Assembly (NCBI RefSeq): GCF_000695095.2
Contig: NZ_CP011454.1
Location: forward strand, 4,154,001-4,218,000
Reading direction: 5' to 3'
From: Gemmatimonas phototrophica
GTDB lineage: Bacteria > Gemmatimonadota > Gemmatimonadetes > Gemmatimonadales > Gemmatimonadaceae
DNA: 64,000 nucleotides
Each line of letters begins with the position of its first letter. Position 1 is the first letter of the stretch. The translations under genes and the position numbers were made by a program. Of the stretch, positions 12,694 to 17,468 are shown piece after piece. Under the pieces are notes generated by a model. It was not told where the DNA came from. It ran no database searches and saw only the letters and a list, made by a program, of their open reading frames with translations.

Positions 12694-13020
12694 TTATCCG
12701 CCGGCCATGGCTCCGACAATGAGCAAGGGCTCACGCCCCGTCTGCACCGCCTCCGGCAGCAGGTCATCCGGTGAGGCGAGCGACAGGTCCTGCTCACAGG
12801 CGTAAAAACGCACGAATGCGCGTCGCCTGTGCGTACCATGATCACGAATGGTCCCGCGCAACACGGGATAGGCGGCCTCCAGCGCATCCAGCACGGCGCG
12901 CAGCGACAGTGGCCCTGTCACCGACAGGGCCAGTTCACCGGTGTGCGACAGCAGCGCGCGCAGTGGCGAAGGAAGCACCACGCGCACCACACGCGCGGCC
13001 ACGGTGGCTTGCTGGGTCAC
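12694..13020 (-). CDS. MoaD/ThiS-like sulfur carrier protein
   Basis: A 108-residue ubiquitin-fold protein of the MoaD/ThiS type. The central [21 protein letters not shown] resembles the MoaD helix, and the C-terminus ends in Gly-Gly (IVGAMAGG), as needed for adenylation and thiocarboxylation by an E1-like enzyme. The GTG start overlaps the stop of the BNR-repeat gene (GTGA), so the two are translationally coupled. A MoeZ-type E1/rhodanese at 14264 is the obvious activating enzyme. No other molybdopterin or thiamine gene is nearby, so the acceptor of the sulfur is unknown. No hinge or tag suggests another family. Confidence 0.8.
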
Positions 13021-14132
13021 GGCAGCGTCTGCACTTCCACCGACAACACCGGTGGCAGGTCATGCACAATCGCCTGCCAATGATCACCGCCATCGGGAGA
13101 CACATACACCTGTCCACCGGACGTCCCGAAGTAAATCCCGCAATCGTCCAGCGTGTCCACGGCCATGGCATCACGCAGCACGTTCACGTAGCAGTTGGCC
13201 TCAGGCAACCCGTTCCCCAAGGCCTCCCATTCGTGTCCGCCGGTGCGACTGCGGTAGACACGCAGCTTCCCGTCGGGTGGGAAGTGGTGCGTGTCACTGG
13301 TGATGGGCACCACGTACACCGTATCCGGTTCGTGCGCGTGCACATCAATGGGAAAACCGAAATCCGTGGGCAGATTGCCACTCACCTCATACCAGCTGTC
13401 GCCACCGTTGTCACTGCGCATCACGTCCCAGTGCTTCTGCATGTACAGCCGTTGCGGGTTGGCGCTGTGCATGGCCAGACGATGCACGCAGTGCCCCACC
13501 TCGGCATCGCCGTCGGGAATTTCGCCGGAACGCAGCCCCTTGTTGATAGGCATCCACGTGGCGCCGCCATCGGTGGTACGAAATGCCCCGGCGGCAGAGA
13601 TGGCGATGTACATCCGCTGCGCATCGGTGGGATCCTGCACGATGGTGTGCAGGCACATGCCCCCGGCACCCGGCTGCCATTGCGACCCCGACCCGTGCTC
13701 GCGCAGCCCCGAGAGCTCCTGCCAGCTGGCGCCACCGTCGGTAGACTTGAACAGCGCCGCGTCTTCCACGCCGGCAAACACGGTATCGGCTTCCGTCAAA
13801 GATGGCTCGAAGTGCCAGACCCGTTTGAATTCCCACGGATGCGGCGTGCCGTCATACCACATGTGCGTGCCGGGAATACCATCGTAGGCGAAGCGATTGT
13901 CCATGGCCTGCCAGCTGCGGCCGCCGTCGTCGCTGCGTTGCACCAGCTGGCCAAACCATCCGCTCGACTGTGACGCATAAAGCCGGTCAGGATTGAGTGG
14001 CGATCCCTTGAGATGGTACATCTCCCAGCCAGGAAAATGCGGCCCGTCCACGGTCCACTTCGTGCGCGTCCCATCAGCCGACAGGATGAACGCACCTTTG
14101 CGCGTACCGACCAGCACTCGAACCCGGCTCAT
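13017..14132 (-). CDS. BNR/ASP-box repeat protein coupled to MoaD-like gene
   Basis: A 371-residue cytoplasmic-looking protein (no signal peptide) with five or six sialidase-type ASP boxes such as [36 protein letters not shown] and VSPDGGDHW, so a beta-propeller. It lacks the Arg triad context of true sialidases, so annotation as an exo-sialidase would be misleading. ATG 14132 is chosen because AGGAG stands six bases upstream; GTG 14135 is an alternative. It ends in a GTGA overlap with the MoaD-like gene. The tight coupling suggests a joint function, perhaps a target or scaffold of the sulfur carrier. Confidence 0.75.
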
Positions 14133-14263
14133 CACATGCTCCTGGTCACAGGGAGAATCAAGCGGTTGTAAACATACGTGGAGATTCCAGCGGTCTGCAC
14201 GTACCTTGGACCACAGATCCCACGCAAACTCATCGTGGGACCAACCGCCGCCGCGATGTACCC

Positions 14264-15415
14264 ATGCCCACAGCCACGTCCCAGTCCCTGCCCCCGCTCA
14301 CGGCAGAGGAATCCAACCGCTACCGCCGGCATCTCATCCTCCCGGGCGTGGGACCCGAGGGGCAGGCGCGCCTCAAGGCGTCCCGCGTGCTCATTGTCGG
14401 GGCCGGTGGACTGGGGTCGCCGGTCGCGCTCTATCTGGCTGCCGCCGGCGTGGGGACCATCGGGCTGGTGGACAACGACCGGGTGGACGCCACCAACCTG
14501 CAGCGTCAGTTGCTGCACGGCACCAGCGACGTGGGGCGCAGCAAACTGGAGTCGGCACGCGATCGGCTGCACGACGTCAACCCGCATGTGCATGTGGTGT
14601 TGCACGCCTCGTGGCTCACGTCGTCCAATGCGCTCGACATCATGCGTGGCTACGATGTGGTCGTGGACGGCACCGACAATTTTGCCACCCGCTATCTCGT
14701 GAATGATGCCTGCGTACTGTTGGGAATTCCCAACGTGCACGGGTCGGTCTTTCGCTTTGATGGGCAGGCGTCGGTGTTCGGTCTCCCCGATGGCCCCTGC
14801 TACCGCTGCCTCTATCCCGAGCCGCCGCCGCCGGAGATGGTCCCCAACTGCGCCGAAGGCGGCGTGCTGGGTGTGCTGCCAGGTATGGTCGGCACCATTC
14901 AGGCCACGGAAACCATCAAGCTGCTGCTCGCACTCGGCGACTCACTCTCCGGCCGCCTGCTCATGATCGATGCGCTGAGCATGGCGTTTCGAACCGTCCG
15001 ACTGGCACGTGACCCCGAGTGCCCCGCGTGTGGCACGCGCACCATTACGCAGCTGATTGACTACGACCAGTTCTGCGGCACGCCGGGACTGCATGCCGAC
15101 GCCCACGCCATCGTGGAGGAAGTCACCGCCGCCACGCTGCGCGACTGGCTGGCCAGCGGGACCCCCCTGCAGCTCATTGATGTGCGCGAGCCCAACGAGA
15201 CGGCCACCGGCACGATTGCCGGCGCCCGCTGCATTCCGCTTGGCACCCTGTCCGAGCAGCTGCCAACGCTGGCCACCGACGTCGTCACGGTATTGGTGTG
15301 CAAAAGTGGCGTGCGCAGCGCGCGCGCGGCCCGGCAACTCATCGCCGCCGGCTTCGCGCAGACGCGCTCACTCGCAGGAGGCATGATGCACTGGGACACG
15401 CCTTACCCGCGTTGA
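14264..15415 (+). CDS. moeZ: MoeZ-type E1-like adenylyltransferase with rhodanese domain
   Basis: A 383-residue two-domain enzyme. The ThiF/MoeB domain (about 15-260) has the nucleotide loop VGAGGLGSP, the zinc pairs Cys179/Cys182 and Cys253/Cys256, and Cys196 in [14 protein letters not shown]. The rhodanese domain (about 285-380) has the persulfide loop CKSGVRS with Cys346. Such proteins adenylate the Gly-Gly end of MoaD/ThiS/CysO carriers and load sulfur as thiocarboxylate. It is divergent from the BNR/MoaD-like pair, about 130 bp away, and that carrier is its likely substrate. Start at ATG 14264; no strong ribosome site seen. Confidence 0.9.
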
Positions 15416-15751: not shown

Positions 15752-17035
15752 CTAGCGCAACGCGGCCCGTAGTTCAGCATACTGCTGCGCGTATTCGCGC
15801 ACCGGGATGCCCTGCGCGATGGCGTCCCACGCCTGGCGCAGACTCGCCGCACCGCCACGTGGGCCCATGGGATGGCCGAAGACCCCTCGCCCCGGCACGA
15901 AGCCGAAGTCCACCGATCCTATGCGGCGGTACACCCCCTCCAGCGTGGCGGCCGAGTCACTGCCTCCCGGCACCGGCAGACTCGGCTTGAGATGTCCCAT
16001 GGGCTCTAGACAGGCCTGCACATTCTCCATCACCTCGTGTTCCGGCGTCATCATGCGATCGCCGAACCCCGGCATGATGATGACATCGGCACCGGCGAGA
16101 CGCTGTAGACGGGTGATCACGCGCGAGTGGACGCCGTGCAGCGGCAGCCGACTGAACGACGCAATGAACGGGAAGTGGGTGACCAGAGGCACGCGAGCGT
16201 GACGACGGAGTGCCCGCACTCCGCTCAGCCCCACCGGCATGGTGTTCACCATGACCATGGTGGCTCCTGCGGCGACGGCCGTGTCGTGGAGCGCGTGCAG
16301 CGCGTCCACTTCGTCCGTGATGTTGGCGAGGTAGCCTTTGGGCACACCAGTGGCAACTTCGGCCCGACGACGTGCATCCCCCAACAACGCGGCCCGTGTC
16401 GCGAGCGGCGAGTAGGGCGCATCCGCCAGCATCTCATCGTCCTTGGCCACATCCAGCCCACCCATCCACCCTTCGAAGCCCAACTGCGCAAACGGCTCGG
16501 GGGGCAGGCCGATGTTGGGCTTGATCACGCCGAAGAAGAGCGGGCGCCCGTAGACCTGCAGCTGGTCACGCACCCCCTGCACGCCAAACTGCGGCCCTTC
16601 GAACGCCGCAAGGTAGGAGGCCGGAAAACGAATGTCTTCCAGTCGGATGAGCGGGATGCCGGGGGCAAAGAACACACCTTCGCCGAGCACTGCGGAAATC
16701 AGATTGGGGAGACGCGGGCCGAAATTGCCGTGCGGGTGCGCAATGACCGCGCGGCAGGCGTGGACGGCGCCCGCTGGCGCGGCTGGCACCGGTACGGAGA
16801 ACCCTGCGGGGCGCGGTGACGACACAAGCGACAGCACCCGGGCGGCAAACTGCGGGCGGAAATCCTCCGCGACCCCGATACGCTGCCATTGTGCCGTGGA
16901 CTGCTCACTGGCCAGATGGGCGGCCGCGGCGCGCGGATCACCGGCGCACTCGAAGGTGAATTCCAGTTCGATGTACTGGTCTGTGATCAGCGCATCGCGG
17001 GACGCAAAGAAGGCGTCGATGTCCTGGGGGGTCAC
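15752..17035 (-). CDS. RuBisCO-like protein (form IV)
   Basis: A 427-residue homolog of the RuBisCO large subunit. The C-terminal barrel keeps [11 protein letters not shown] with Lys172 (Lys175 of RuBisCO) and [10 protein letters not shown] with Lys198, Asp199 and Glu201 (the carbamylation/metal site). However, KPKLG is changed to KPNIG and the loop-6 Lys motif is absent ([10 protein letters not shown]), so it should not fix CO2. Known form IV proteins enolise or isomerise sulfur-containing or sugar phosphates. I chose GTG 17035, four bases after the YjbQ stop; the longer frame to 17143 would overlap YjbQ. The pairing with YjbQ is conserved-looking and may be functional. Confidence 0.88.
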
Positions 17036-17039
17036 TGCT

Positions 17040-17468
17040 TCACTCGGTGCGCAGCAGATGCAGATGCACCTCGCGCGCAGTGCGCGGGCCATCGAGCTCC
17101 ACCAGAAAGAGCGATTGCCATCCGCCCAGCTCAAGCTCGCCATCTGTCACCGGAATGGTTTCGGTGGCGTTGAGAAAGAGCCCGAGCAAATGCGCGTGCG
17201 CATTCAGTCGATCGTCCACCGGTGCCCGGTTATGACCGTAGGCAGCGGTCGCCGGCGCCAGCTGTTCCAGCCAGCGGATCATGTCCTGCTGCAACTCCCC
17301 TTCCCGCTCATTGAGCGTAATGCGTGCCGTGGTATGCGGCGACATCACGGTCAGGAGGCCATGTTGGACGCCACTCTGACGTACCCATTCTCGCACCGAC
17401 TCGGTGATATCGAGCAGGTCAATGGGCCGCGTCGTGGTGAGGGCCAGACGGTGGCGAAGCGGAGGCAT
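17040..17468 (-). CDS. YjbQ/UPF0047 family protein
   Basis: A 142-residue protein of the UPF0047/YjbQ family. [19 protein letters not shown] and the [30 protein letters not shown] core are diagnostic, and the [15 protein letters not shown] ending is typical. Its relatives show weak thiamine-phosphate synthase activity, but their real role is unclear. It is the first gene of a two-gene unit with the RuBisCO-like protein, four bases apart. Divergent from the DUF1569-like gene. Confidence 0.88.

What the first reader, a model, noticed from the sequence alone, without database searches (positions are those of the whole stretch)
15752..17468. RuBisCO-like protein in a two-gene unit with YjbQ
A form IV protein that keeps the KDDE metal segment but has KPNIG in place of KPKLG and no loop-6 Lys is four bases downstream of a YjbQ gene. 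YjbQ has no settled function. The link suggests a shared small-molecule pathway, perhaps phosphosugar or thiamine-related salvage.
Basis: partly seen in the sequence, partly recalled or inferred. Interest (0 to 1): 0.6.

Follow-up and report, generated by a model that had tools for sequence, protein, structure and literature searches.

The report
Photo-type RuBisCO-like protein with dedicated YjbQ
A RuBisCO relative of unknown function, found mostly in photosynthetic bacteria, is inherited together with its own version of another mystery protein, YjbQ, so solving one should help solve the other.

Summary
A 427-aa RuBisCO-like protein (RLP; GTG start, 15752-17035, minus) follows a 142-aa YjbQ (17040-17468, minus) after 4 bases. 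The RLP belongs to the form IV-Photo clade (705 bits to R. palustris RLP2, 595 to the C. tepidum RLP, next RLP 179). The G. phototrophica RLP was already placed in that clade in print (PMC7844134). The clade has no settled function.

The link with YjbQ is real and specific. yjbQ lies directly upstream of the RLP in 70 of 80 named loci. 78 adjacent loci fall into about 30 gene contexts. The partner is a separate YjbQ clade. In 249 Gemmatimonadota it occurs in exactly the 12 genomes that carry the RLP. In 397 genomes of the R. palustris order, 6 of 6 copies adjoin the RLP. Chlorobiaceae split the pair but 8 of 9 keep both genes.

Best reading: a dedicated two-enzyme module acting on one phosphorylated small molecule. 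Phototrophy is correlated but not required. Methionine salvage is ruled out by published R. palustris work (PMC5893883). The substrate is unknown; thiamine is not supported. I found no paper reporting the pair, but key reviews are not held.

The parts
15752..17035 (-). Form IV-Photo RuBisCO-like protein, 427 aa, GTG start
   Evidence: 705 bits to 2qyg and 595 bits to 1tel; groups with all other IV-Photo rows (96/98*)
17036..17039 (-). 4-base spacer between the yjbQ stop and the RLP start
   Evidence: median spacing 4 nt over 81 loci with yjbQ on the same strand within 2.5 kb
17040..17468 (-). YjbQ/UPF0047 protein, 142 aa, of the RLP-specific YjbQ clade (invariant D85, R87)
   Evidence: clade; residues

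Best explanation
The two genes are one dedicated metabolic module. SHOWN: the IV-Photo RLP and a separate clade of YjbQ are co-inherited, usually with stop and start codons a few bases apart or overlapping, in many unrelated gene contexts, with no third gene regularly shared between lineages. INFERRED: the RLP uses its kept Mg-binding Lys-Asp-Glu site and kept base (K172) to enolise or isomerise a phosphorylated ketose or diketone; it has lost the residues that in RuBisCO hold the far phosphate and CO2. INFERRED: YjbQ acts on the same phosphorylated compound: it makes the RLP substrate, removes its product, or clears its by-product. Its family-wide histidines are complemented by clade-specific Asp85 and Arg87 just before the conserved NAHxHL motif. 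INFERRED: the product matters most in phototrophs but is not part of light capture itself.
For: yjbQ directly upstream, same strand, in 70 of 80 named loci; the 11 other survey loci all have it on the same strand, 10 adjacent and one (G128) 1.7 kb upstream. Spacing median 4 nt over 81 loci, 14 of 81 with a 4-base overlap. 78 adjacent loci in 30-32 contexts; in ORF clustering only RLP, YjbQ, their shadow ORFs and one sporadic family (10 loci, scattered positions and strands) reach 4 or more taxon groups. RLP-type YjbQ (54% identity or more) in 12 of 12 RLP+ and 0 of 237 RLP- Gemmatimonadota (Fisher 1e-20, ignoring kinship). In genus g1 any YjbQ occurs in the 3 RLP+ genomes and none of the 7 RLP- ones. 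6 of 6 RLP-type copies among 397 genomes of the R. palustris order adjoin the RLP. Chlorobiaceae, where the genes are apart, keep the RLP-type copy in 8 of 9 genomes, and it falls in the same clade. Control: 18 other RuBisCO-family loci of the phylum have no YjbQ in the flank searched, at most about 1.5 kb. Active-site residues. R. palustris RLP2 has a trace 5-methylthioribulose-1-P isomerase activity in vitro (PMC5893883 passages).
Against: No substrate is known for either protein. Deleting R. palustris rlp2 gave no sulfur or MTA phenotype. In Chlorobiaceae the two genes are apart, so a shared operon is not required. One of the 80 named genomes (G255, a 2.2-Mb MAG) has no YjbQ found. YjbQ has no structural relative of known function. 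Arg87 and Asp85 were not mapped on a structure with a ligand.
Confidence: 0.72

Rival explanations
1. The pair is an accessory of the photosynthetic apparatus (stress protection or pigment supply), not a separate small-molecule route.
For: In nine Chromatiaceae-type genomes (G293, G295, G296, G297, G299, G300, G301, G303, G306) the yjbQ match lies 1.5-2.8 kb from a pufM match on the same contig, downstream of pufL and pufC in L088. 9 of 12 RLP+ Gemmatimonadota have Photo_RC against 16 of 237 others; G122 has bchL as well. 43 of 50 named genomes tested have Photo_RC.
Against: G056 (100% complete) and G072 (96%) carry the pair but have neither Photo_RC nor bchL over cut-off; the same holds for G260, G275, G286, G289. 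16 of 25 Photo_RC-positive Gemmatimonadota lack it. No PpsR-type motif enrichment upstream: 4 of 81 loci against about 3 expected.
Confidence: 0.2
2. YjbQ is a repair enzyme that clears a dead-end sugar phosphate made by the RLP, or a physical partner that activates it, as helper proteins do for RuBisCO (analogy recalled).
For: Tight gene coupling (median 4 nt) and a YjbQ clade tied to this RLP. E. coli yjbQ overexpression rescues a pdxB mutant, so the family may act on phosphorylated sugars or acids (PMC7954711 passage).
Against: No direct evidence for either; split genes in Chlorobiaceae speak mildly against an obligate complex.
Confidence: 0.25
3. Neutral hitch-hiking: the genes moved together by horizontal transfer without a shared function.
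For: Horizontal transfer is visible: G150 RLP is sister to Ectothiorhodospira (99/94*), and its YjbQ lies with theirs outside the other 56 RLP-type rows (99/96*).
Against: About 30 contexts keep the pair, and both genes are kept even where they are separated.
Confidence: 0.04
4. A methionine-salvage enzyme (MtnW enolase or R. rubrum-type MTRu-1-P isomerase).
For: MtnA is present in 46 of 46 RLP+ genomes tested (but also in 4 of 4 RLP- ones); a trace isomerase activity is reported.
Against: MtnW models far below cut-off: 135.5 of 513.6 and 167.6 of 409 bits. R. [quoted passage not shown]
Confidence: 0.04

Closest known systems
Form IV-Photo RLP: R. palustris RLP2 (PDB 2qyg) and C. tepidum RLP (1tel, 1ykw)
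   Same: 72% and 59% identical, full length, same motif residues in the alignment
   Different: Different phylum; Chlorobiaceae relatives have yjbQ elsewhere in the genome
YjbQ/UPF0047 (Pfam PF01894, TIGR00149; PDB 1vph, 2p6h)
   Same: Fold (Z 18.0-21.8 to nine solved YjbQ entries), family-wide His45, His79, His93
   Different: Own clade; Asp85 and Arg87 in all 56 distinct RLP-type rows and in none of 52 generic rows
R. rubrum / R. palustris RLP1 5-methylthioribulose-1-P isomerase
   Same: RuBisCO superfamily; R. palustris RLP2 shows a trace of this reaction
   Different: RLP2 does not serve MTA metabolism in vivo
MtnW enolase; OiaX 3-oxo-isoapionate-4-P decarboxylase
   Same: RuBisCO-like family with a detectable match
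   Different: NCBIfam scores far below cut-off

Membership tests
Form IV-Photo RLP | Groups with C. tepidum RLP and R. palustris RLP2 to the exclusion of other forms | tested here: met
   705 and 595 bits against 179 for the next solved RLP; 60 IV-Photo rows split from 10 other RuBisCO-family rows (96/98*). The tree held R. palustris JSC-3b and Chlorobiaceae relatives, not 2qyg/1tel themselves, and no named YkrW/DeepYkr references
Form IV-Photo RLP | Metal-site Lys, Asp, Glu kept; some substrate residues replaced | tested here: met
   K198, D200, E201, K172, N111, H287 kept; N174, F288, I291, I320, R327, G357, S359, R383 at RuBisCO K177, R295, H298, H327, K334, S379, G381, G403 (alignment; RuBisCO numbering recalled; placement near loop 6 and I320 is gap-dependent)
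Form IV-Photo RLP | No RuBP carboxylation | not testable with these tools
   needs an assay
YjbQ/UPF0047 | Pfam and NCBIfam models over cut-off | tested here: met
   126.7 (27) and 108.9 (67.75) bits
YjbQ/UPF0047 | YjbQ fold | tested here: met
   model pLDDT 95.4; Z 18.0-21.8 to nine YjbQ entries
YjbQ/UPF0047 | Secondary thiamine-phosphate synthase activity | not testable with these tools
   needs an assay
MtnW (DK-MTP-1-P enolase) | NCBIfam equivalog cut-off | tested here: not met
   TIGR03332 135.5 of 513.6; NF007095 167.6 of 409
OiaX | NCBIfam equivalog cut-off | tested here: not met
   NF042437 200.2 of 700
RuBisCO (carboxylating) | Loop-6 Lys and both motif Lys kept | tested here: not met
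   KPNIG and R327; TIGR03326 201.7 of 497.45

The most novel reading that the evidence does not exclude
The module turns 5-deoxyribulose-1-phosphate, from 5'-deoxyadenosine shed by radical-SAM enzymes (for example in bacteriochlorophyll and cofactor synthesis), straight into 1-deoxyxylulose-5-phosphate (DXP), the entry to isoprenoids, thiamine and vitamin B6. The RLP would do the same 1,3-isomerisation that RLP1 does on the methylthio analogue, and YjbQ would correct the C3 epimer or clear the side product. Hints only: trace isomerase activity of RLP2, MtnA in all RLP+ genomes tested, and RLP-type yjbQ directly upstream of dxs in 8 of 8 Chlorobiaceae loci.
Probability: 0.12. Interest if true: 0.85.

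Novelty: new variant of a known kind. Interest (0 to 1): 0.6.

Why it matters
The Photo RLP has been known since 2001 and I found no assigned reaction for it in the papers read; YjbQ is a widespread protein with no settled role. A one-to-one, lineage-crossing partnership narrows both problems to one: a small protein and an RLP that can be expressed together, deleted together and assayed together. The presence of the pair in near-complete genomes without reaction-centre or bchL genes also means that the job is not photosynthesis itself, although the clade bears that name.

Tried and rejected
LsrF-like/aldolase route: in Chlorobiaceae the RLP follows a class II aldolase-SDR fusion (8 of 9 loci) and an LsrF-like gene (9 of 9, one of them cut by the contig end; LsrF-like 510 bits against cut-off 297). 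Strong LsrF-like hits in 50 genomes are confined to Chlorobiota (10 of 50), with two weak 30% hits in alphaproteobacteria, so it is not part of the general system.

MtnA as a discriminating test: present in 50 of 50, RLP+ and RLP- alike, so it excludes nothing.

dxs near the pair in Rhodomicrobium (L052): it sits behind a histone-deacetylase-like ORF and a 97-aa ORF, which I recall as the usual alphaproteobacterial dxs neighbourhood, with a SOUL gene on the other strand between dxs and yjbQ; treated as chance.

PpsR motif (TGT-N12-ACA, recalled) upstream of yjbQ: 4 of 81 loci against about 3 expected; not in the window.

A first attempt to count contexts by single linkage of any shared flanking ORF gave 7 components, one of 69 loci, because common paralogues joined unrelated loci. 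It was replaced by a same-side, same-strand rule within 1.5 or 3 kb, giving 32 and 30 contexts. Survey and named sets overlap: several genomes occur in both (for example L040/L049, L038/L069, L042/L077, L043/L086), so 89 loci are fewer than 89 genomes.

Thiamine: no thiamine gene was recognised next to the pair among the neighbours that I annotated; only a selection was annotated.

Fold search with the YjbQ model: no characterised relative above the background.

Not searched: 18 of the 80 named genomes for YjbQ genome-wide (searches cover 62 of 80) and 30 of 80 for Photo_RC (one search covers 50 of 80). The genome-contig scan kept only the 80 best of 248 confirmed stretches, which favours sequences near the query and under-represents Chlorobiaceae. 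The YjbQ and RLP trees used chosen subsets of the loci (113 and 70 rows).

Full report
What is there. On the minus strand the window carries a 142-aa YjbQ gene (17040-17468) and, 4 bases on, a 427-aa RuBisCO-like gene (17035-15752) that starts at GTG. Both families are clear: RuBisCO_large 167.7 bits, UPF0047 126.7 bits, TIGR00149 108.9 bits, all above the curated cut-offs. The genome is a single 4.72-Mb contig, 99.96% complete, with only this RuBisCO-family match and with two Photo_RC genes more than 2 Mb away and bchL over cut-off, so it is a phototrophic Gemmatimonadota. It is most likely Gemmatimonas phototrophica or a close relative (inference from size, kin and the published RLP).

Which RLP. 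The closest solved proteins are R. palustris RLP2 (2qyg, 705 bits) and the C. tepidum RLP (1tel/1ykw, 595 and 593 bits); the next RLP scores 179. Sixty such sequences form one side of a tree against ten other RuBisCO-family proteins of the phylum (96/98*). So it is form IV-Photo. This placement is in print for G. phototrophica, and G. groenlandica is reported to lack a homologue (PMC7844134, passages); that paper does not contain the word YjbQ (0 occurrences). Type IV genes in phototrophic Gemmatimonadota MAGs are also reported (PMC8547001, passages). The function is open: R. [quoted passage not shown] tepidum pleiotropy, with further experiments called for (PMC5893883, passages). The A. vinosum role is called unclear (PMC11267869, passages).

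Active site. By alignment to RuBisCO 6hun (RuBisCO numbers recalled), Lys175, Lys201, Asp203, Glu204, Asn123 and His294 are kept (K172, K198, D200, E201, N111, H287). Lys177 is Asn174, Arg295 is Phe288, His298 is Ile291, His327 is Ile320, the loop-6 Lys aligns with Arg327, and Gly403 with Arg383. R327 and R383 are invariant in ten IV-Photo rows. The chemistry of enolising a metal-bound ketose is therefore intact on paper, while the grip on the far phosphate and CO2 is not. This is inference from sequence.

The pair across genomes. In a survey of 249 Gemmatimonadota, 12 carry an IV-Photo RLP (65-100% identity). All 12 have yjbQ upstream on the same strand; 11 of 12 are adjacent, and in G128 it is 1.7 kb away. 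In a named collection the best 80 of 248 confirmed stretches were kept; yjbQ is directly upstream in 70 of 80. The ten misses are nine Chlorobiaceae and one Thiorhodovibrio MAG. Over 81 loci the median spacing is 4 nt and 14 overlap by 4 nt. Clustering all ORFs of 89 loci shows RLP, YjbQ and their shadow ORFs reaching four or more taxon groups, plus one sporadic family (10 loci at scattered positions and strands) that was not identified. The 78 adjacent loci fall into 30-32 flanking contexts. As a control, 18 other RuBisCO-family loci of the phylum have no YjbQ in the flank searched, at most about 1.5 kb.

A dedicated YjbQ. YjbQ as a family is common (143 of 249 genomes), but the copies near this one are not. 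The 12 RLP genomes hold copies of 54% identity or more (156 bits or more); the best of all others is 48% over 124 residues (103 bits, G096), then 86 bits. In the genus of the window any YjbQ occurs in the 3 RLP+ genomes and none of the 7 RLP- genomes. In 397 genomes of the R. palustris order only 6 have such a copy at E 1e-30, and all 6 adjoin an IV-Photo RLP. Chlorobiaceae have the genes apart, yet 8 of 9 genomes keep an RLP-type copy (about 50%) and Thiorhodovibrio one of 54%. In a YjbQ tree of 113 chosen rows the generic rows split from the RLP-type rows with 97/94*; G096 attaches next to the RLP-type side by a long branch. RLP-type rows share Asp85 and Arg87 in a short insert before the NAHxHL motif (56 of 56 distinct rows, 0 of 52 generic). 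Of 80 named genomes, 79 thus hold both genes; G255 does not as far as searched.

Phototrophy. In the survey, 9 of 12 RLP+ genomes have Photo_RC against 16 of 237 others. G122 has bchL and is a phototroph with a gap (inference); G056 and G072 have neither marker over cut-off. Of 50 named genomes tested 43 have Photo_RC; of the 7 others 3 have bchL over cut-off and 4 do not. In nine Chromatiaceae-type genomes the yjbQ match lies 1.5-2.8 kb from a pufM match on the same contig, with pufL and pufC upstream on the same strand in L088; in L103 a Nudix and a lipoyl-synthase-like gene follow. The tie to phototrophy is strong but not strict in either direction.

Co-transfer. G150, of another family of the class, has an RLP sister to Ectothiorhodospira (99/94*) and a YjbQ that also sits with Ectothiorhodospira outside the rest. 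Chlorobiaceae and Chloroherpetonaceae RLPs lie inside a clade otherwise of purple gammaproteobacteria (100/98*). The Chloroherpetonaceae MAG still has the genes adjacent, so Chlorobiaceae probably lost the linkage (inference).

How it may work. The surest statement is that one function needs both proteins. From family chemistry the RLP enolises or isomerises a phosphorylated ketose or diketone, and YjbQ acts on the same compound. Thin hints at the substrate: RLP2 slowly turns a little 5-methylthioribulose-1-P into 1-methylthioxylulose-5-P; RLP-type yjbQ precedes dxs in 8 of 8 Chlorobiaceae loci, which are close kin and so few independent events; E. coli yjbQ in excess rescues a pdxB mutant by an unknown route (PMC7954711, passages). 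Together they allow a route from 5'-deoxyadenosine to DXP, which I give as the bold reading, not as the finding.

Is it new? No held paper contains both YjbQ and RubisCO-like; searches for YjbQ/UPF0047 and for the gene numbers RPA0261-0263 and CT1772 found no report of the pair in what was listed.

Noticed in passing
window 12694-15415: A 108-aa protein ending in Gly-Gly (no Pfam match; looks like a MoaD/ThiS-type carrier by eye) overlaps a BNR-repeat gene, next to a ThiF-rhodanese protein nearest to MoeZ/MoeB models.
   Followed up: no
L097 1712-7863, L107 6814-9867: Chlorobiaceae RLP lies in a run with a class II aldolase-SDR fusion, an LsrF-like protein and an SDR; in L097 a bchF gene lies further upstream.
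   Followed up: partly
L118 / G306:C61: A MAG titled Candidatus Thiosymbion has pufL/M on the same contig as the RLP-YjbQ pair; a chemosynthetic symbiont would not be expected to be phototrophic, so mis-binning is possible.
   Followed up: no
L054 / G260: A MAG titled Gammaproteobacteria carries a Gemmatimonadaceae-like pair (YjbQ 72.5%, RLP 75%) and no Photo_RC or bchL over cut-off; mislabelled or transferred.
   Followed up: no
L039 (G128): The only Gemmatimonadota survey locus with a gap of about 1.7 kb between yjbQ and the RLP.
   Followed up: no
L210 (G096:C26): A Gemmatimonadota YjbQ of 48% identity, no IV-Photo RLP found in its genome, attaches next to the RLP-type clade by a long branch; its place is unsure.
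   Followed up: no
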